From Solirubrobacterales bacterium (GTDB lineage: Bacteria; Actinomycetota; Thermoleophilia; Solirubrobacterales; Solirubrobacteraceae), in the NCBI GenBank assembly GCA_019240115.1, contig JAFAYV010000032.1, positions 1-48,058 on the forward strand: a stretch of DNA of 48,058 nt, read 5' to 3'. Below, one piece after another: positions 1,423 to 8,946 of the stretch; the first letter of the stretch is position 1; every line of letters starts with the position of its first letter. A program made the translations under genes and the position numbers. The notes beneath the pieces were generated by a model. That model searched no databases and was not told the origin of the DNA. It worked only from the letters and a program-made list of their open reading frames with translations.

Positions 1423-3189
1423 GTGGCCGTCGCCCGCCTCGCCGTCGCCAGCATGCCCGAGGGGACGGTCCGCCTGAGCGACGAGATCGAGCTCTATCAG
1501 CGGACCTACACGACGCTGCTGCGCTCCAGCGGGGAGACGCACCTGCGGGTGCTCGAGCCCTCGCACCGGGCGATCGGCTCGAGCCTGCACCCGCTGGCGG
1601 CCAGCGACGAGATCGATCTCGGGGCCTTTATCTACGCCATCCGCCGGCTGCCCGACGGGATCATCGGCGCGCGCCTGGTCGTCATGGCCCAGGAGGTCGA
1701 GGCGCTGCTGCGGGCCGGGATGCCGGTGCAGTCCTGGCAGGAGGCCGAGGCCCCGGCCCGGCGGCGGCGGTGGTACGACGACGACGCGGGCACGCTGGCC
1801 GTCCTGCTCGCCTCGGCGTCCGACGTCGACGACCTCGTCCCGACCCTCGTCGCCTTCCAGATCGAATGGAACAAGATCCGGGTCCGCCAGCGCGCCGCCG
1901 GCTGGAGCGAGACCGTGGGCGACGACGACCCGTCGGCGGCGGAGTGCCACCGGCTGCTGGGCGGCAGCGGCGAGGACTGGGGACGTCTGCGCGAGGCGTG
2001 GGGCGATCGCTTCGCCGCGCACCTGCGGCTCATCTCGGCGCAGCGGATGTCGCTGCGCCTGCGGATGTTCGGCGGGTCGCACGCCGGCTATGCGCGCCTG
2101 ACCCGCCGCTGGTGGACGCCGGTCTCGGAGGAGCTCGGCCGGGCCGAGCGCCCGCTGTACTTCGTCAGCTCCAACTCGCACAGCCTCGTCAACATCGCCA
2201 CCTCGGTCGCTCGCGACCGCGAGTCAGAGCTCGTCGCCTTCGTCGAGACGACGGACCCGGACGACATCCTGCGCCACGAGCTCGCCGCCTTCCGGGAGGG
2301 ACGCGCCGAGGGCTCGTGGGAGAACTTCCTGTACTTCGTCGCCCGGATCTACTTCTCGGCCCGCGGCGCGGCCGGCGCGGCCGAGCGCCGCGCCGCCGAG
2401 CTGGCCAACGGCGTCACCCACATGCGCAGCACCACCGCCCTGCGCGTCCCGGCCCAGATCCTCCCCCTGGCGGCGCTGCAGTGCGAAGGCCTCGACCCGC
2501 GCGTGGGCGACGTCGACGCCGACGCGCTGGCATCGAGCGACGCGGTGATCGTCAACATCGACTATCCGCTGGGCGCGGCGGCGTACAACATCCTGCGCGA
2601 AGTCGCCGTCGACCGGGCCGCACTGCGCGGGGTCTACGTGCTCGGCACGGCGGCGACGCTGAACGCCGACGTCGGCGACGTGATGATCTCGAGCGTCGTC
2701 CACGACGAGCACTCGAGCTCGACCTACTGGCTCGACAACGCGTTCGACGTCGGCGACCTCGCCGCTGACCTGAGGTTCGGGACCGGGCTGGACAACCAGC
2801 GCGCGGTGACGGTCAAGAGCACGTTCCTGCAGAACCGCTCCTATCTCGACTTCTACTACCGCGAGGCCTACACGGTCGTCGAGATGGAGGCGGGCCCGTT
2901 CTGCAACGCGGTCTACGAGATGGCCGACCCCGACCGCCACCCGGTCGGCGAGGCGGTCAGCTTCTCGCGACTGCCGATCGACCTCGGGATCATCCACTAC
3001 GCCTCCGACACGCCCTACACCCAGGCGCGCACCCTCGGCGCGCGCGGGCTCAGCTACTACGGGATGGACTCGACCTACGCCGGGTCGCTGGCGATCCTGC
3101 GGCGCGTCCTGCTGCTCGAGGACGTGCTTCGCGCGCCGGTCCCGTCGGGCGGCGAGGCTAGGCCCCGACGGGATGCCATGCGGTCGTGA
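1423..3189 (+). CDS. DUF6909-type protein with nucleoside-phosphorylase-like C-terminal domain
   Basis: This is a 588-residue soluble protein. The N-terminal ~350 residues are largely helical and of unknown role. The C-terminal ~210 residues resemble the PNP/UDP phosphorylase fold: an alternating beta/alpha layout, VYVLGTAATLNADVGDVMI, and VVEMEAGPF, which matches the purine/uridine phosphorylase and MTA/SAH nucleosidase family signature containing the ribose-binding Glu. The gene sits with LOG, upp, cytidine deaminase and adenosine deaminase, which supports a role in nucleoside or nucleotide metabolism. The substrate cannot be told. The annotated start is GTG; an ATG 30 nt downstream (MPEGTVRLSDE) is an equally good candidate. 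The DUF number is from memory. The PNP-like reading is inference from motifs. Confidence 0.7.
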   Translation: MAVARLAVASMPEGTVRLSDEIELYQRTYTTLLRSSGETHLRVLEPSHRAIGSSLHPLAASDEIDLGAFIYAIRRLPDGIIGARLVVMAQEVEALLRAGMPVQSWQEAEAPARRRRWYDDDAGTLAVLLASASDVDDLVPTLVAFQIEWNKIRVRQRAAGWSETVGDDDPSAAECHRLLGGSGEDWGRLREAWGDRFAAHLRLISAQRMSLRLRMFGGSHAGYARLTRRWWTPVSEELGRAERPLYFVSSNSHSLVNIATSVARDRESELVAFVETTDPDDILRHELAAFREGRAEGSWENFLYFVARIYFSARGAAGAAERRAAELANGVTHMRSTTALRVPAQILPLAALQCEGLDPRVGDVDADALASSDAVIVNIDYPLGAAAYNILREVAVDRAALRGVYVLGTAATLNADVGDVMISSVVHDEHSSSTYWLDNAFDVGDLAADLRFGTGLDNQRAVTVKSTFLQNRSYLDFYYREAYTVVEMEAGPFCNAVYEMADPDRHPVGEAVSFSRLPIDLGIIHYASDTPYTQARTLGARGLSYYGMDSTYAGSLAILRRVLLLEDVLRAPVPSGGEARPRRDAMRS

Positions 3190-3303
3190 GCGCAGGCTGA
3201 CAACCCGCGCGGGGATGTCGGCGACGCCGAGCACCTCGAGGTCGAGGCCGGCGAGCGGCGCGTCTCAGCCGCAACCGGGGCCGGCTCTATGCTGGACGCA
3301 GCG

Positions 3304-3930
3304 ATGCAGCGGGTTCTGGTCTTCTGTGGCTCGAGCCCCGGGAGCCGGCCCGAGTACGCCGCCGCGGCGGCCGAGCTCGGCCGCGTGCTGGCGGCCCGTG
3401 GCCTCGGGCTCGTCTACGGCGGCGCGAGCGTCGGGCTGATGGGCACGATCGCCGACGCCGCGCTCGGCGGCGGAGCGCAGGTCATCGGGGTCATCCCCGA
3501 GCGCCTGATGGAGGTCCGGGAGGTGCCCCACCGCGGGCTGACCGAGCTGCGCGTCGTGGCCACGATGCACGAGCGCAAGGCGCTGATGGCCGAGCTCTCC
3601 GACGCAGTGGCCGTCCTGCCCGGCGGCGCGGGGACGCTCGAGGAGCTGTTCGAGATGTACACCTGGAGCCAGCTCGGCCTCCACGACAAGGCGATCGGCC
3701 TGCTCAACGTCGCCGGCTACTGGGACGGGCTGCTGACGATGCTCGACCGGATGGTCGCCGAGCGGTTCCTGCGCGCCGAGCACCGCCACGCCCTGCTCGT
3801 CGAGCGCGATCCCGAGGCGCTGCTGCAGCGCCTGGCCGCCCAGCGCCACCGGGCCCCCGACACGTGGCTGGACCCTCAGAGCGTGCCGAAGACGCGGTCG
3901 CCGGCATCGCCCAGGCCGGGGCGGATGTAG
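3304..3930 (+). CDS. LOG family protein (nucleoside 5'-monophosphate phosphoribohydrolase-like)
   Basis: The protein is about 208 residues. It begins with a Rossmann-like strand and loop (VLVFCGSSPGS), has the glycine-rich segment VYGGASVGLMG, and carries the family signature PGGAGTLEE, whose Glu is catalytic in LOG/TIGR00730 enzymes. These enzymes cleave cytokinin riboside monophosphates or, in many bacteria, purine/pyrimidine NMPs to base plus ribose 5-phosphate. The ATG at 3304 is preferred over the upstream in-frame start at 3289, which adds a non-conserved MLDAA. The gene is convergent with upp and overlaps its 3' end by about 55 nt; the last ~20 residues are an unconserved basic tail. 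The context is base salvage: the base released here could be re-used by upp. Confidence 0.85.
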   Translation: MQRVLVFCGSSPGSRPEYAAAAAELGRVLAARGLGLVYGGASVGLMGTIADAALGGGAQVIGVIPERLMEVREVPHRGLTELRVVATMHERKALMAELSDAVAVLPGGAGTLEELFEMYTWSQLGLHDKAIGLLNVAGYWDGLLTMLDRMVAERFLRAEHRHALLVERDPEALLQRLAAQRHRAPDTWLDPQSVPKTRSPASPRPGRM

Positions 3931-4505
3931 GCGTTCTCGTCGAGCTCGCGGTCGATCGCCGCGGTCCAGATGACGACGTCGGGATGCTCGGCCTCCAGCG
4001 CCCGCAGCCCCTCGGGTGCCGCGACGAGGCACACGAGCTGCAGCTGGCGCGCGCCGGCGCGCTTGAGGTGGTGCAGCGCCCGAACCGCGCTGCCCCCGGT
4101 GGCCAGCATCGGGTCCAGCACGTAGACGCGGGTCTCGCCCAGCCCCGGCGGCAACCGCTCGAAGTAGTCGATCGGCTCGTGGTCGGTGTGATCGCGCTGG
4201 ATGCCGAGGTGCCCGACGCGCGCGTCGGGCAACAGCCGCAGGAAGCCCTCGACCATCCCCAGCCCGGCCCGCAGGACGGGCACGACCGCGACCTCGTCGC
4301 GGATCCGCTGCCCGCGCGTCGGCTCCAGCGGCGTCTCGATCTCGACCTCGAGCGCCGGCAGGTCGCGGGCGACCTCGACGGCCATGATCGCCGAGGCCTC
4401 GTACACGGCCTGCCGGAAGATCCCGTGCGGGGTCGCGCGATCGCGCATGAGCGTCAGGCGGTCGGCGAGGACCGTGTGCTGGACGGTGATGATGCGTTGC
4501 CCCAC
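3876..4505 (-). CDS. upp: Uracil phosphoribosyltransferase
   Basis: At 209 residues it has the normal family length. It catalyses uracil + PRPP to UMP + PPi in pyrimidine salvage. The PRPP-binding loop VYVLDPMLATGGSA is near residues 125-140, and the start VQHTVLADRLTLMRD and the C-terminal uracil-binding region GDAGDRVFGTL are canonical. The start is GTG at 4505. The gene is divergent from the CYTH-cytidine deaminase gene, with only 45 nt between the starts, so promoters must overlap. Its 3' end overlaps the LOG gene on the opposite strand. It is intact and should be functional. Confidence 0.95.
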   Translation of the reverse strand: MGQRIITVQHTVLADRLTLMRDRATPHGIFRQAVYEASAIMAVEVARDLPALEVEIETPLEPTRGQRIRDEVAVVPVLRAGLGMVEGFLRLLPDARVGHLGIQRDHTDHEPIDYFERLPPGLGETRVYVLDPMLATGGSAVRALHHLKRAGARQLQLVCLVAAPEGLRALEAEHPDVVIWTAAIDRELDENAYIRPGLGDAGDRVFGTL

Positions 4506-4550
4506 GCGGCGATGCTACCGGGGGCCGGGACGGTAGCCTCGCCCCCGCCG

Positions 4551-5459
4551 ATGGCCTCCGTCAACGTCGAGCTGAAGGCTCGCGACGCCGACCCCAGGAC
4601 GACCGCCGCCCGCTGCCGCGCGCTCGGAGCCCGCGACCACGGCGTGCTCGAGCAGCGCGACACCTACTTCCACGGCCGCGTCGGCCGGCTCAAGCTCCGC
4701 CAGACGGCCGACGGCCCCGCCGAGCTGATCGCCTACCGCCGTCCCGACGGCGCCGAGCCCGGAGCCAGCGGGTACGTCCGCGCGCCGGCCGGCGATCCGG
4801 CGGCGCTGCGCGAGGCGCTCGTCGCCGCGCTCGGTCCCGCGATCGTCGTCGTCGACAAGCGTCGGCGGCTGTTCACCTGGGAGAGCGTGCGCATCCATCT
4901 CGACGAGGTGGAGGGGCTCGGCACGTTCGTCGAGCTCGAGTCGATCGTCGGCGGCGACGCCGGCGAGGCGCGGGCGCGGGCCGCGCTCGCCCGCCTGCGC
5001 GCCGAGCTCGCGATCGCCGACGACGCGCTCGTCGCGGTCAGCTACTGCGACCTGCTGCTCGACGCGCCCGCGGCGCTGCTCGCGGCCGCCGAGGCCGCGA
5101 TGCGCCGCGCCTACGCCCCCTACTCGCAGTTCAAGGTCGGCGCCGCCGTCCGCGGCGCCACCGGCGCGATCTACGCGGGGGCCAACGTCGAGAACGTCGC
5201 CTTCCCGCAGGGCCAGTGCGCCGAGGCCTCGGCGATCGGGGCGCTCGTGACCGCGGGCGAGTCCGCGCTCACCGAGGTCGCGGTCGTCGCCGAGCGCCTG
5301 GAGCACTGTCCGCCGTGCGGTGGGTGCCGTCAACGGCTCGTCGAGTTCGGGTCGGCGTCGACGCCCGTCCATCTCGGCCGACCCGGTGCCGCGCCGCGGA
5401 CGACGACGCTCGGCGAGCTGCTGCCGGGGTCGTTTCACCGCGCCGCGCTGCGGTCCTGA
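4551..5459 (+). CDS. CYTH domain - cytidine deaminase fusion protein
   Basis: This is a 302-residue two-domain protein. Residues 1 to about 165 are a CYTH (class IV adenylate cyclase / thiamine-triphosphatase-type) tunnel-fold domain: NVELKARD at the start, RDTYF then GRLKLR, and HLDEVEGLGTFVELE. Residues 170-302 are a zinc-dependent cytidine deaminase: YSQFKVGAAV, NVENVAFPQGQCAEASAIG (Cys-Ala-Glu with the catalytic Glu) and CPPCGGCRQ (two zinc Cys). The deaminase should convert cytidine or deoxycytidine to uridine. The role of the CYTH part is unknown; it may bind or hydrolyse a triphosphate. The ATG at 4551 is chosen because the frame upstream has no CYTH-like sequence and is antisense to upp. 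Both halves keep their signature residues, so a true fusion is more likely than a frame artefact. Confidence 0.85.
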   Translation: MASVNVELKARDADPRTTAARCRALGARDHGVLEQRDTYFHGRVGRLKLRQTADGPAELIAYRRPDGAEPGASGYVRAPAGDPAALREALVAALGPAIVVVDKRRRLFTWESVRIHLDEVEGLGTFVELESIVGGDAGEARARAALARLRAELAIADDALVAVSYCDLLLDAPAALLAAAEAAMRRAYAPYSQFKVGAAVRGATGAIYAGANVENVAFPQGQCAEASAIGALVTAGESALTEVAVVAERLEHCPPCGGCRQRLVEFGSASTPVHLGRPGAAPRTTTLGELLPGSFHRAALRS

Positions 5460-5542
5460 ACCCGAACGCGCCCCGCGCGTCGCGCAGCGTCTCACCCGGC
5501 TGCTGCCGGGCTTCGTCCCGCCTGCGCTAGACCTCGGGTCGC

Positions 5543-6523
5543 ATGACCCTCCCAAAGGTCGAGCTTCACGTCCATCTCGAGGGCACCGCGACTCCGGAGC
5601 TCGTGCGCCGGCTGGCCGACCGCAACCGCGTCGCCCTCCCCGATCGCCTCCTCGACGCCGACGGGCGCTTTGCCTACGGCGACTTCCTGCACTTCCTGCG
5701 GACCTATGACCTGGCGGCGAGCGTCATCCGCACACCCCGGGACTACCGCGACATCACCTACGAGTACCTCTCAGCGTGCGCGCGCGAGGGCGCCATCTAC
5801 GTCGAGCTGACCGCCTCGCCCGATCACGCCGCGGTCGTCGGGCTGACCGACGGCGAGGAGCTCGACGGGATCGCCCAGGGGATCGAAGACGCTCGGCGCG
5901 ACCACGAGATCGAGGCGCGGATCCTCGTCGTCGCCATCCGCGACCTCGGACCCGCGCGGGCGGCACGCATCGCGCGCCTGGCCGCGGCGCGAGCCCACCC
6001 CCACGTCGTCGGCTTCTCGATGGCGGGCGACGAGGCCGGTTACCCCGCCGAGCAGTTCGCCGACGCCTATGCGATCGCCGCCGCCGCCGGGCTCGGGTGC
6101 ACGATGCACGCCGGCGAGTGGGCCGGCGCCGACAGCGTCCGCGGCACGCTCACGCTGCCGGTGACCCGGATCGCCCACGGGGTGCGCGCGATCGAGGATC
6201 CCGGCCTCGTCGCCGAGCTCGCCCGCCGTGGGATCGTGCTCGACACCTGCCCGACGAGCAACGTCGTCCTCGGCGTGTTTCGCTCCTACGAGGAGCATCC
6301 CCTCCCCCGCCTGCGCGATGCCGGTGTCCGGCTCACCCTCGGCTCCGACGACCCACCGTACTTCGGCGCGACGATCGGCGGCGAGTACCGCGCGTGCGCC
6401 GAGCGAATGGGGTTCAGCGAGACGCAGCTGCGCGCCATCACCGACACCGCGGTTGACGCCGCCTTCTGCGACGACGATCTCAAGCGCGATCTCCGCGCGC
6501 GCCTTCGCCCGGTCGGCGGCTAG
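5543..6523 (+). CDS. add: Adenosine deaminase
   Basis: The protein has 326 residues, the usual length. It should deaminate adenosine (or adenine/N6-modified adenine) to inosine. Metal and catalytic motifs are in order: HVHLEG (His9/His11), CTMHAGE with the zinc His and catalytic Glu region, the proton-shuttle His in RIAHGVRAIED, and the zinc Asp in GSDDPPYFG. It lies 83 nt after the deaminase fusion on the same strand and is probably co-transcribed, completing a purine plus pyrimidine deamination pair. Some family members act on adenine or on aminodeoxyfutalosine; the motifs alone do not exclude these. The gene is convergent with the UvrA2-like gene. Confidence 0.9.
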   Translation: MTLPKVELHVHLEGTATPELVRRLADRNRVALPDRLLDADGRFAYGDFLHFLRTYDLAASVIRTPRDYRDITYEYLSACAREGAIYVELTASPDHAAVVGLTDGEELDGIAQGIEDARRDHEIEARILVVAIRDLGPARAARIARLAAARAHPHVVGFSMAGDEAGYPAEQFADAYAIAAAAGLGCTMHAGEWAGADSVRGTLTLPVTRIAHGVRAIEDPGLVAELARRGIVLDTCPTSNVVLGVFRSYEEHPLPRLRDAGVRLTLGSDDPPYFGATIGGEYRACAERMGFSETQLRAITDTAVDAAFCDDDLKRDLRARLRPVGG

Positions 6524-6585: not shown

Positions 6586-8946
6586 TCAGGCGCCCACGTA
6601 CTCCGCGAGGTGCTCGCCGGTGAGCGTGGCGCCGTCGGCGATGAGGTCGGCAGGGGTGCCGGCGAAGACGATCCGGCCGCCGTCGTGGCCCGCGCCGGGA
6701 CCGAGGTCGATGATCCAGTCGGCGTGCGCTATGACCGTCCGGTGGTGCTCGATGACGATGACCGACTTGCCGGAGTCGACGAGCTGGTCGAGCAGGCCGA
6801 GCAGCTGCTCGACGTCGGCGAGGTGCAGGCCCGAGGTCGGCTCGTCGAGGACGTAGACGTCGCCGGCCTGCCCCATCCGAGCGGCCAGCTTCAGGCGCTG
6901 ACGCTCGCCCCCGGACAGCGCCGTGAGCGGTTGGCCGAGGGTGATGTAGCCGAGCCCGACGTCGGCGAGCCGCTCGAGGATCCTCTGCGCGGCGGGCGTC
7001 TGCGCCGTGGAGAAGAACTCCGCGGCCTCGGTCACCGACATCGCCAGCACCTCGGAGATGTCGCGGCGGCTGAGCTTGTACTCGAGCACCGAGGCCCCGA
7101 AGCGCTTGCCGTCGCACTCTTCGCACGTGGTGGCGACGCCCGCCATGATCGCCAGGTCGGTGTAGATGACGCCGGCGCCGTTGCAGGCGGGGCAGGCGCC
7201 GTCGGAGTTCGCGCTGAACAGGCCCGGCTTGACGTCGTTGGCCTTGGCGAACGCCTTGCGGATCGGGTCGAGCAGTCCGGTGTAGGTCGCCGGGTTGCTC
7301 CGGCGCGAGCCGCGGATCGGGGCTTGGTCGATCGACACGACCCCATCGCGCCCGGACACCGAGCCTCCGATCAGCGAGCTCTTGCCCGAGCCCGCCACCC
7401 CGGTGACGACGACGAGGACGCCGAGCGGGATGTCGACGTCGATGTCCCGCAGATTGTGGGCGGTGGCGCCCCGGATCTCCATCCGCTCGGTGGCGGTCCG
7501 GACCCCGGTCTTGAGCACGGGCCGGTCGTCGAGATGGCGACCGGTCGACGTGCCCGAGGCGCGGAGCCGCTCGACGGTCCCCTCGAAGCAGAGCGTGCCG
7601 CCGTCGGCGCCGGCGCCGGGGCCGAGGTCGACGACGTGGTCGGCGATCGCGATCGTCTGTGGCTTGTGCTCGACGACGAGGACCGTATTGCCCTTGTCGC
7701 GCAGCCGCAGCAGAAGATCGTTCATCCGCTGGATGTCGTGCGGGTGCAGGCCGATCGTCGGCTCGTCGAACACGTAGGTGACGTCGGTCAGCGAGGAGCC
7801 GAGATGGCCGACCATCTTGACGCGCTGTGCCTCGCCGCCCGACAGCGTGCTCGACGGCCGGTCGAGCGACAGATAGCCCAGCCCGATCTCGACGAACGAG
7901 CTCAGCGTCCGCGTGAGCGCCTCGAGCAGCGGTGCCATGGCCTTGCTGCCGATGCCGTCGACCCATCCGGCCAGGTCTGAGATCTGCATCGCGCAGGCGT
8001 CGGCGATGTTCAGCCCTCCGATCTTCGACGACCGCGCCTCCGCGCTGAGCCGGGTGCCGTCACACTTCGGGCACTCGGTGAAGGTGACGGCACGGTCGAC
8101 GAACTCGCGCACGTGCGGCTGCAGCGACTCGACGTCCTTGGACAGGATCGATCGCTGCACCCGCGGGATCAGACCCTCGTAGGTCATGTTGATCCCCGCG
8201 ATCTTCATCCGCTCGGCCTCGTGGTGCAGGAAGTCGTGGCGCTGCTGCTTGGTGTACCTGCTGATCGGCTTGTCGGGGTCGACGAAGCCCGACTCGCTGT
8301 ACAGCCGGGCGTTCCAGCCGCCCGTGTAGCCGGGAACGAGGATCGCGCCCTCCGAGAGCGACCGAGAGGCGTCGAAGAGCTGGGTGAGATCGATGTCGGA
8401 AACCGTGCCCCGGCCCTCGCAATGCGGACACATCCCGCCGGTGCGGGTGAACGTCCGGTTCACCGTCCTGCCGTCGCCGACGGTGATCTTGCCGATCGCC
8501 TTCACCGAGGGAACGTTGAAGGAGAACGCGTTCGGCGAGCCGATCCGCGGCTTGCCGATCCGGCTGAACAGGATGCGCAGCATCGCGCCCGAGTCGGTGG
8601 TGGTGCCGACGGTGGAGCGAGCGTCGCCGCCCATCCGCTGCTGGTCGACGAGGATCGCGGTCGTCAGCCCGTCGAGGACGTCGACGTCGGGGCGCGCCAT
8701 CGTCGGCATGAAGCCCTGCACGAACGCACTGTAGGTCTCGTTGATGAGCCGCTGCGACTCCGCGGCGATCGTGCCGAACACGAGCGAGCTCTTGCCCGAC
8801 CCCGAAACGCCGGTGAACACCGTCAGTCGGCGCTTTGGGATCTCGACGCTGATGTCCCGCAGGTTGTTCACGCGCGCGCCGTGCACGCGGATCAGGTCGT
8901 GGACGTCAGCCTGCGCCTTGGCTGACTGCTTCGTCCTCGTGGCCAT
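6586..8946 (-). CDS. UvrA2/DrrC-type excinuclease-like ATPase
   Basis: This is a 786-residue protein with two ABC ATPase modules. Walker A motifs are GVSGSGKSS (46-54) and GVAGSGKSS in the second half, and two ABC signatures (LSGGEAQR, LSGGERQR) are present. Two zinc-finger Cys pair sets (CPHCEGRG/CPKCDGTRL and CPACNG/CEECDG) are seen. Housekeeping UvrA is about 950 residues; the shorter length suggests loss of the UvrB-binding region, as in the UvrA2/DrrC group. That group is linked to tolerance of DNA-binding drugs such as daunorubicin. The gene is downstream of, and probably co-transcribed with, a VOC-family protein (12-nt gap). Together they could form a small resistance unit. The substrate is unknown. 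Confidence 0.9.
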   Translation of the reverse strand: MATRTKQSAKAQADVHDLIRVHGARVNNLRDISVEIPKRRLTVFTGVSGSGKSSLVFGTIAAESQRLINETYSAFVQGFMPTMARPDVDVLDGLTTAILVDQQRMGGDARSTVGTTTDSGAMLRILFSRIGKPRIGSPNAFSFNVPSVKAIGKITVGDGRTVNRTFTRTGGMCPHCEGRGTVSDIDLTQLFDASRSLSEGAILVPGYTGGWNARLYSESGFVDPDKPISRYTKQQRHDFLHHEAERMKIAGINMTYEGLIPRVQRSILSKDVESLQPHVREFVDRAVTFTECPKCDGTRLSAEARSSKIGGLNIADACAMQISDLAGWVDGIGSKAMAPLLEALTRTLSSFVEIGLGYLSLDRPSSTLSGGEAQRVKMVGHLGSSLTDVTYVFDEPTIGLHPHDIQRMNDLLLRLRDKGNTVLVVEHKPQTIAIADHVVDLGPGAGADGGTLCFEGTVERLRASGTSTGRHLDDRPVLKTGVRTATERMEIRGATAHNLRDIDVDIPLGVLVVVTGVAGSGKSSLIGGSVSGRDGVVSIDQAPIRGSRRSNPATYTGLLDPIRKAFAKANDVKPGLFSANSDGACPACNGAGVIYTDLAIMAGVATTCEECDGKRFGASVLEYKLSRRDISEVLAMSVTEAAEFFSTAQTPAAQRILERLADVGLGYITLGQPLTALSGGERQRLKLAARMGQAGDVYVLDEPTSGLHLADVEQLLGLLDQLVDSGKSVIVIEHHRTVIAHADWIIDLGPGAGHDGGRIVFAGTPADLIADGATLTGEHLAEYVGA

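What the first reader, a model, noticed from the sequence alone, without database searches (positions are those of the whole stretch)
4551..5459. CYTH triphosphate-tunnel domain fused to cytidine deaminase
Both halves keep their signature residues in a single frame. A class IV cyclase/triphosphatase-like fold joined to a pyrimidine deaminase could act on cytidine tri- or oligophosphates, or be regulated by a nucleotide. I do not know of a characterised protein of this type.
Basis: partly seen in the sequence, partly recalled or inferred. Interest (0 to 1): 0.65.

Follow-up and report, generated by a model that had tools for sequence, protein, structure and literature searches.

The report
Fused CYTH–cytidine deaminase salvage protein
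This is a genuine two-part protein in which a phosphate-handling "tunnel" domain of an unstudied type is joined directly to an ordinary cytidine-recycling enzyme; it has been kept in at least 27 related bacteria and ties that unstudied tunnel family to nucleoside recycling, though what the tunnel half does is still unknown.

Summary
ORF 4551-5459 (+) encodes 302 aa: a complete CYTH/TTM domain (res. ~4-170) joined by a 2-6 residue linker to a complete tetrameric-type zinc cytidine deaminase (CDA, res. ~171-300). It is no assembly artefact: the same single-frame fusion occurs in 27 genomes of one order (Solirubrobacterales-type Actinomycetota), at one locus: divergent upp, then the fusion, usually a pyrimidine-nucleoside phosphorylase, then add. 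Both halves are under purifying selection. In the CDA tree the fusion has one origin, and five relatives at the same locus have cleanly lost the CYTH half. No fusion was seen elsewhere in the sampled class or phylum. One correction: the CYTH half has NxExK, not the hallmark ExExK, as do all 97 relatives examined, a widespread subfamily with no solved structure found. It lacks the class IV cyclase marks and the ThTPase Trp. Most likely it is bifunctional: CDA deaminates (deoxy)cytidine, while the CYTH half hydrolyses a triphosphate independently, co-regulated with salvage. I found no paper describing this architecture. New architecture of two known folds; moderate interest, mainly as a clue to the NxExK CYTH subfamily.

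The parts
4551..5459 (+). CYTH–cytidine deaminase fusion gene, 302 aa, ATG start, TGA stop
   Evidence: fused homologues in 26 other genomes
4560..5060 (+). N-terminal CYTH/TTM domain (residues ~4-170): eight strands plus C-terminal helices; NxExK, DTY, KLR, RIHLDEVEGLG, ELE
   Evidence: Pfam PF01928 50.9 bits; model strands E4-11, 28-41, 46-52, 57-63, 72-80, 99-110, 113-120, 124-133; Z 22.7 to 2dc4 over 162 residues
4563..4577 (+). NVELK: the ExExK position with Asn for the first Glu
   Evidence: alignments; profile alignment to 2dc4 EIEVK
5061..5069 (+). direct joint between the domains: linker of 2-6 residues across the family
   Evidence: pLDDT dip to 64 at residues 161-170
5070..5456 (+). 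C-terminal tetrameric-type cytidine deaminase with CAE and PCGGC zinc motifs and NVEN
   Evidence: TIGR01354 124.2 bits, PRK05578 131.1 bits; Z 21.2 to 2d30, 40% identity
3876..4505 (-). upp, uracil phosphoribosyltransferase, divergent; start codon 45 nt from the fusion's start
   Evidence: conserved beside the fusion and beside the CYTH-less CDA
5543..6523 (+). add-type adenosine deaminase family gene, 83 nt downstream
   Evidence: present downstream in most loci long enough to show it
4506..4550 (.). 45-nt divergent start region between upp and the fusion; in CYTH-less relatives the CDA starts beside the upp start instead

Best explanation
A bifunctional nucleoside-salvage protein. The C-terminal half is an ordinary zinc cytidine/deoxycytidine deaminase, likely tetrameric, converting (deoxy)cytidine to (deoxy)uridine, which neighbouring phosphorylase and upp products can recycle to UMP. 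The N-terminal half is a triphosphate-tunnel domain of the uncharacterised NxExK subfamily, most likely a TTM-type phosphohydrolase that cleaves a nucleoside or inorganic triphosphate on its own, with no substrate passed between the halves. The fusion most likely arose once in this lineage at the upp–cdd–add locus, so that both activities are made together and the CDA tetramer would carry four CYTH domains. Shown: the fusion, its conservation, locus, motifs, and (by prediction) the folds; the later loss of the CYTH half is read from the CDA tree. Inferred: CDA activity (strongly), CYTH hydrolase activity (moderately), functional independence (from the gene distribution).
For: CDA scores above curated cut-offs with intact zinc and catalytic motifs and a matching predicted fold, and is the only tetramer-type CDA match in its genome. 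Locus upp / fusion / PNP_UDP_1 or pyrimidine phosphorylase / add / Bmp-type transporter. CYTH fold Z 22.7; residues shared by all 26 CYTHs of alignment A2 include E7, K9, D37, R46, K48, R50, R64, K103, R105, D118, E121, E128, E130; dN/dS 0.08-0.54 in the CYTH half. No HF motif, ExE intact (97/97), which by the rule of PMC8233210 points to TTM-type rather than cyclase activity. Independence: in this family CYTH-only genomes lack a close CDA and CDA-only genomes lack CYTH, and the extra CYTH copies in fusion genomes are the ordinary ExERK type.
Against: The first Glu of ExExK, a ligand of the catalytic metal 2 whose mutation strongly reduces activity in AtTTM3 (PMC4641920), is Asn here, and the arginine whose loss inhibits AtTTM3/ygiF is Lys; so the CYTH half could be a binding module or do other chemistry. 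No activity data exist. A fusion kept in 27 species with a linker of a few residues also fits functional coupling. The CYTH tree rejects the fused CYTHs as one clade (p-AU 0.013), so the history is more complex than the CDA tree suggests.
Confidence: 0.5

Rival explanations
1. Regulatory fusion: the CYTH tunnel binds a nucleoside triphosphate or polyphosphate and allosterically controls cytidine deaminase, as a feedback sensor of the pyrimidine pool.
For: Very short linker; metal-2 Glu replaced by Asn, which could favour binding over hydrolysis (PMC4641920).
Against: The same NxExK site is invariant in free-standing CYTH proteins of several phyla with no CDA in the fetched locus; five relatives run the same locus without the CYTH half.
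Confidence: 0.2
2. Coupled catalysis: the CYTH half dephosphorylates CTP/dCTP or cytidine oligophosphates and feeds the CDA half.
For: Physical fusion; salvage locus.
Against: SaTTM hydrolyses NTPs to NDPs without base specificity (PMC8233210); a diphosphate is not a CDA substrate (established knowledge), so two phosphates would remain; CYTH also occurs without CDA.
Confidence: 0.07
3. The CYTH half is a class IV adenylyl cyclase that makes cAMP as a nucleoside-availability signal.
For: Weak hit to TIGR00318 cyaB, below its cut-off (33 vs 57.95 bits); fold similarity to Yersinia CyaB (Z 19.5).
Against: No HFxxxxExExK; second Glu of ExE not Ala; basic Lys rather than a small residue at the gate position (rule in PMC8233210). 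SaTTM matches as well (Z 19.4) and makes no cyclic nucleotide.
Confidence: 0.05
4. Passenger fusion: two co-regulated genes joined in frame; both halves work but co-translation has no further meaning.
For: The CYTH half was lost without disturbing the locus in five relatives.
Against: Retained in 27 genomes over several genera and two families with the joint kept at 2-6 residues.
Confidence: 0.18

Closest known systems
Tetrameric zinc cytidine deaminase (Cdd; TIGR01354, PRK05578; e.g. PDB 2d30, 1mq0, 1jtk)
   Same: Whole C-terminal half: CAE/PCGGC zinc site, NxEN, LLP-containing tail, fold (Z 21.2, 40% identity to 2d30)
   Different: Carries a 170-residue N-terminal CYTH domain; Ala/Thr/Val instead of Arg after CAE, a change also common in free-standing CDAs
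Archaeal CYTH proteins and SaTTM (2dc4, 1yem, 2een, 7ns8-7nsf)
   Same: Closest solved folds of the N-terminal half (best Z 22.7); DxY, ExE, tunnel basic residues
   Different: NxExK instead of ExExK, KxR instead of RxR; about 20% identity; fused to CDA
Class IV adenylyl cyclase CyaB
   Same: CYTH fold (Z ~19.5); weak sub-cut-off profile hit
   Different: No HF motif, ExE intact, basic gate residue
Plant TTM1/TTM2 (P-loop kinase PF00485 + CYTH) and YgiF (CYTH + CHAD)
   Same: CYTH fused to another domain (PMC8233210); in TTM1/2 the partner family includes uridine kinases (own knowledge), so a partial precedent for CYTH with pyrimidine-salvage-type folds
   Different: Different partner, different order in TTM1/2, different motif set
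Free-standing NxExK CYTH proteins (Planctomycetota, Krumholzibacteriota, Chloroflexota, Pseudomonadota, other Actinomycetota)
   Same: Same subfamily, 37-55% identity, same invariant site
   Different: Single-domain; no recurrent salvage neighbours found

Membership tests
Tetrameric cytidine deaminase (T-CDA) | Score over curated family cut-off | tested here: met
   TIGR01354 124.2 vs 113.65; PRK05578 131.1 vs 74
Tetrameric cytidine deaminase (T-CDA) | Zinc ligands and catalytic Glu: CAE and PCxxC | tested here: met
   CAE and PCGGC invariant in 27 fused proteins
Tetrameric cytidine deaminase (T-CDA) | Fold | tested here: met
   predicted model: Z 21.2, rmsd 1.8 over 124 residues to 2d30
Tetrameric cytidine deaminase (T-CDA) | Homotetramer and deaminase activity | not testable with these tools
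   needs purified protein
CYTH/TTM superfamily (PF01928) | Curated profile score | tested here: met
   50.9 bits, cut-off 23.2
CYTH/TTM superfamily (PF01928) | Eight-stranded tunnel fold | tested here: met
   eight strands in the model; Z 22.7 to 2dc4
Canonical TTM triphosphatase | Hallmark ExExK (metal-2 ligands) | tested here: not met
   NxExK in 97 of 97; so placed in the CYTH superfamily as a divergent subfamily, not filed as a canonical TTM
Canonical TTM triphosphatase | ExE on the last strand | tested here: met
   97 of 97
Canonical TTM triphosphatase | Triphosphatase activity | not testable with these tools
   needs assay
Class IV adenylyl cyclase | HFxxxxExExK | tested here: not met
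   absent in all fused proteins
Class IV adenylyl cyclase | second Glu of ExE replaced by Ala | tested here: not met
   ExE in 97 of 97
Thiamine triphosphatase | W/YxRxR | tested here: not met
   GRLKLR in the window: no Trp/Tyr, Lys for the first Arg

The most novel reading that the evidence does not exclude
The NxExK CYTH domain is a new kind of tunnel enzyme or sensor acting on a salvage-related nucleotide, with one catalytic metal site altered, and its fusion to cytidine deaminase is a regulatory or metabolic coupling between the nucleotide pool and cytidine deamination that has not been described.
Probability: 0.25. Interest if true: 0.65.

Novelty: new variant of a known kind. Interest (0 to 1): 0.42.

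Why it matters
Many CYTH proteins are automatically labelled 'adenylate cyclase', and the large NxExK group has no function or solved structure that I could find. A conserved natural fusion to a known enzyme in a fixed nucleoside-salvage locus is the kind of clue that can direct the first assays. Relatives with the fusion, with CDA alone at the same locus, and with CYTH alone form a natural comparison series.

Tried and rejected
(1) Artefact or frame error: rejected, 27 genomes. (2) Separate adjacent genes in relatives: none found; apparent alignments running past a stop (e.g. G008, G017, G012) are end-of-gene spillover. (3) Fusion outside the order: none listed among 396 phylum and 399 class genomes sampled, nor among the best 80 of 228 hits in genome contigs; long open frames around class-level CDAs were checked in a few cases, and the one CDA frame printed had no recognisable CYTH upstream. 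(4) Functional neighbours of free-standing CYTH: none recurrent beyond close relatives (Lon, PriA, DinB-type polymerase, Tricorn protease and so on). (5) A CYTH remnant upstream of CYTH-less CDAs: none seen by eye. (6) Solved structure of an NxExK CYTH: none found. (7) Literature on CYTH–cytidine deaminase: none relevant in the open library. (8) Shared cleft: not judged; pTM 0.66 does not fix the domain orientation, and the tetramer was not modelled.

Full report
What is there. The ORF 4551-5459 on the + strand encodes 302 residues. Pfam CYTH matches residues 5-162 and the cytidine deaminase families match from residue 173-176 to near the end, with two curated CDA cut-offs exceeded. An AlphaFold2 model on a 73-row alignment has mean pLDDT 89.2. 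It contains an eight-stranded domain whose best solved match is 2dc4 (Z 22.7, 162 residues), and a CDA domain whose best match is 2d30 (Z 21.2, 124 residues, 40% identity). The pTM of 0.66 means the mutual orientation is not fixed, so nothing is claimed about a shared cleft.

It is not an artefact. A search of the order (232 genomes) finds the same full-length, stop-free fusion in 27 genomes including the window's, the others at 50-71% identity, from several genera of the window's family and one genome of a second family. Three fused contigs carry public names, all 'Solirubrobacterales bacterium'. In the window's family, 31 of 146 genomes have a tetramer-type CDA over the cut-off: 26 are this fusion and 5 are CDA alone. 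The joint is tight: 2-6 residues separate the conserved end of CYTH from the first CDA helix. Pairwise dN/dS is 0.08-0.54 in the CYTH half and 0.06-0.41 in the CDA half, so both are under purifying selection.

Locus. The fusion is read divergently from upp; in the window the start codons are 45 nt apart. In relatives a pyrimidine-nucleoside phosphorylase, sometimes a PNP_UDP_1 phosphorylase, then add and in some a Bmp/PnrA-type binding protein with an ABC ATPase follow. In the window add follows directly, and its genome (95.6% complete) has no PYNP_C hit. The five CDA-only relatives keep the same locus, with CDA starting just beside the upp start.

History. In the CDA tree the fused proteins and the five CYTH-less ones form one group, with the CYTH-less ones nested inside. 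Holding all fused ones together as a clade is rejected (p-AU 0.02), which fits one fusion followed by one clean loss of the CYTH half. In the CYTH tree the fused domains are mixed with free-standing CYTHs of the same order, and one clade is rejected (p-AU 0.013). Later losses of the CDA half, transfer, or more than one joining could explain that; short sequences limit certainty.

What the CYTH half is. All 97 CYTH domains examined, fused or free, have NxExK where the superfamily hallmark is ExExK; all have ExE, and every fused one has DxY and KxR. Residues invariant in the 26-row cross-phylum set include E7, K9, D37, R46, K48, R50, R64, K103, R105, D118, E121, E128 and E130 (window numbering). 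By the motif rules of PMC8233210, absence of HFxxxxExExK together with an intact ExE argues against class IV cyclase, and absence of W/YxRxR argues against ThTPase; TTM is the default. But the first Glu of ExExK is a ligand of the catalytic metal in AtTTM3/YgiF, and its mutation in AtTTM3 strongly reduces activity (PMC4641920), so the NxExK group is non-canonical and its activity must be measured. Second CYTH copies in eight of the fusion genomes are the ordinary ExERK type, so in those genomes the fusion is the only NxExK member seen.

Interpretation. The distribution argues that the two halves can work separately: CYTH persists without a close CDA, CDA persists without CYTH, and the locus is kept either way. 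The most economical reading is a bifunctional salvage protein, with a normal CDA plus an independent tunnel phosphohydrolase made in fixed proportion and scaffolded by the CDA tetramer. A sensor role is the main rival; direct processing of cytidine phosphates is unlikely because TTM action leaves a diphosphate. CDA specificity for nucleosides and its tetrameric state are established knowledge of the family, not tested here.

Novelty. Two known folds in an architecture for which I found no description (open-access library only). The value lies in linking a widespread, unstudied CYTH subfamily to nucleoside salvage.

Noticed in passing
window 3289-3930 (+) and 3876-4505 (-): A LOG-type (cytokinin riboside 5'-monophosphate phosphoribohydrolase family) gene converges on upp with a 55-nt overlap of the 3' ends; LOG-type genes also appear near the locus in several relatives.
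   Followed up: partly
window 1423-3189 (+): A 588-aa DUF6909 protein (668 bits) lies upstream; it is also found near the fusion, the CDA alone, or a CYTH gene in a few relatives.
   Followed up: no
window 5460-5542: The pyrimidine-nucleoside phosphorylase gene usually found between the fusion and add is missing here, and no PYNP_C hit exists in the whole assembly.
   Followed up: partly
L122, L123, L124, L125, L126: Five same-genus genomes keep the locus but have lost just the CYTH half, with CDA beginning beside the divergent upp start.
   Followed up: yes
window 5217-5228: The residue after CAE is Ala/Thr/Val in all fused proteins, where the B. subtilis enzyme has Arg56; the change is also common in free-standing CDAs.
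   Followed up: partly
window 6586-8946 (-): A 786-aa ORF with two ATP-binding cassette-like halves, UvrA-like by eye; not searched against families.
   Followed up: no
L289, L290: Two genomes of another family in the same class carry a free NxExK CYTH 54% identical to the window's, closer than most free-standing ones, perhaps by transfer.
   Followed up: no
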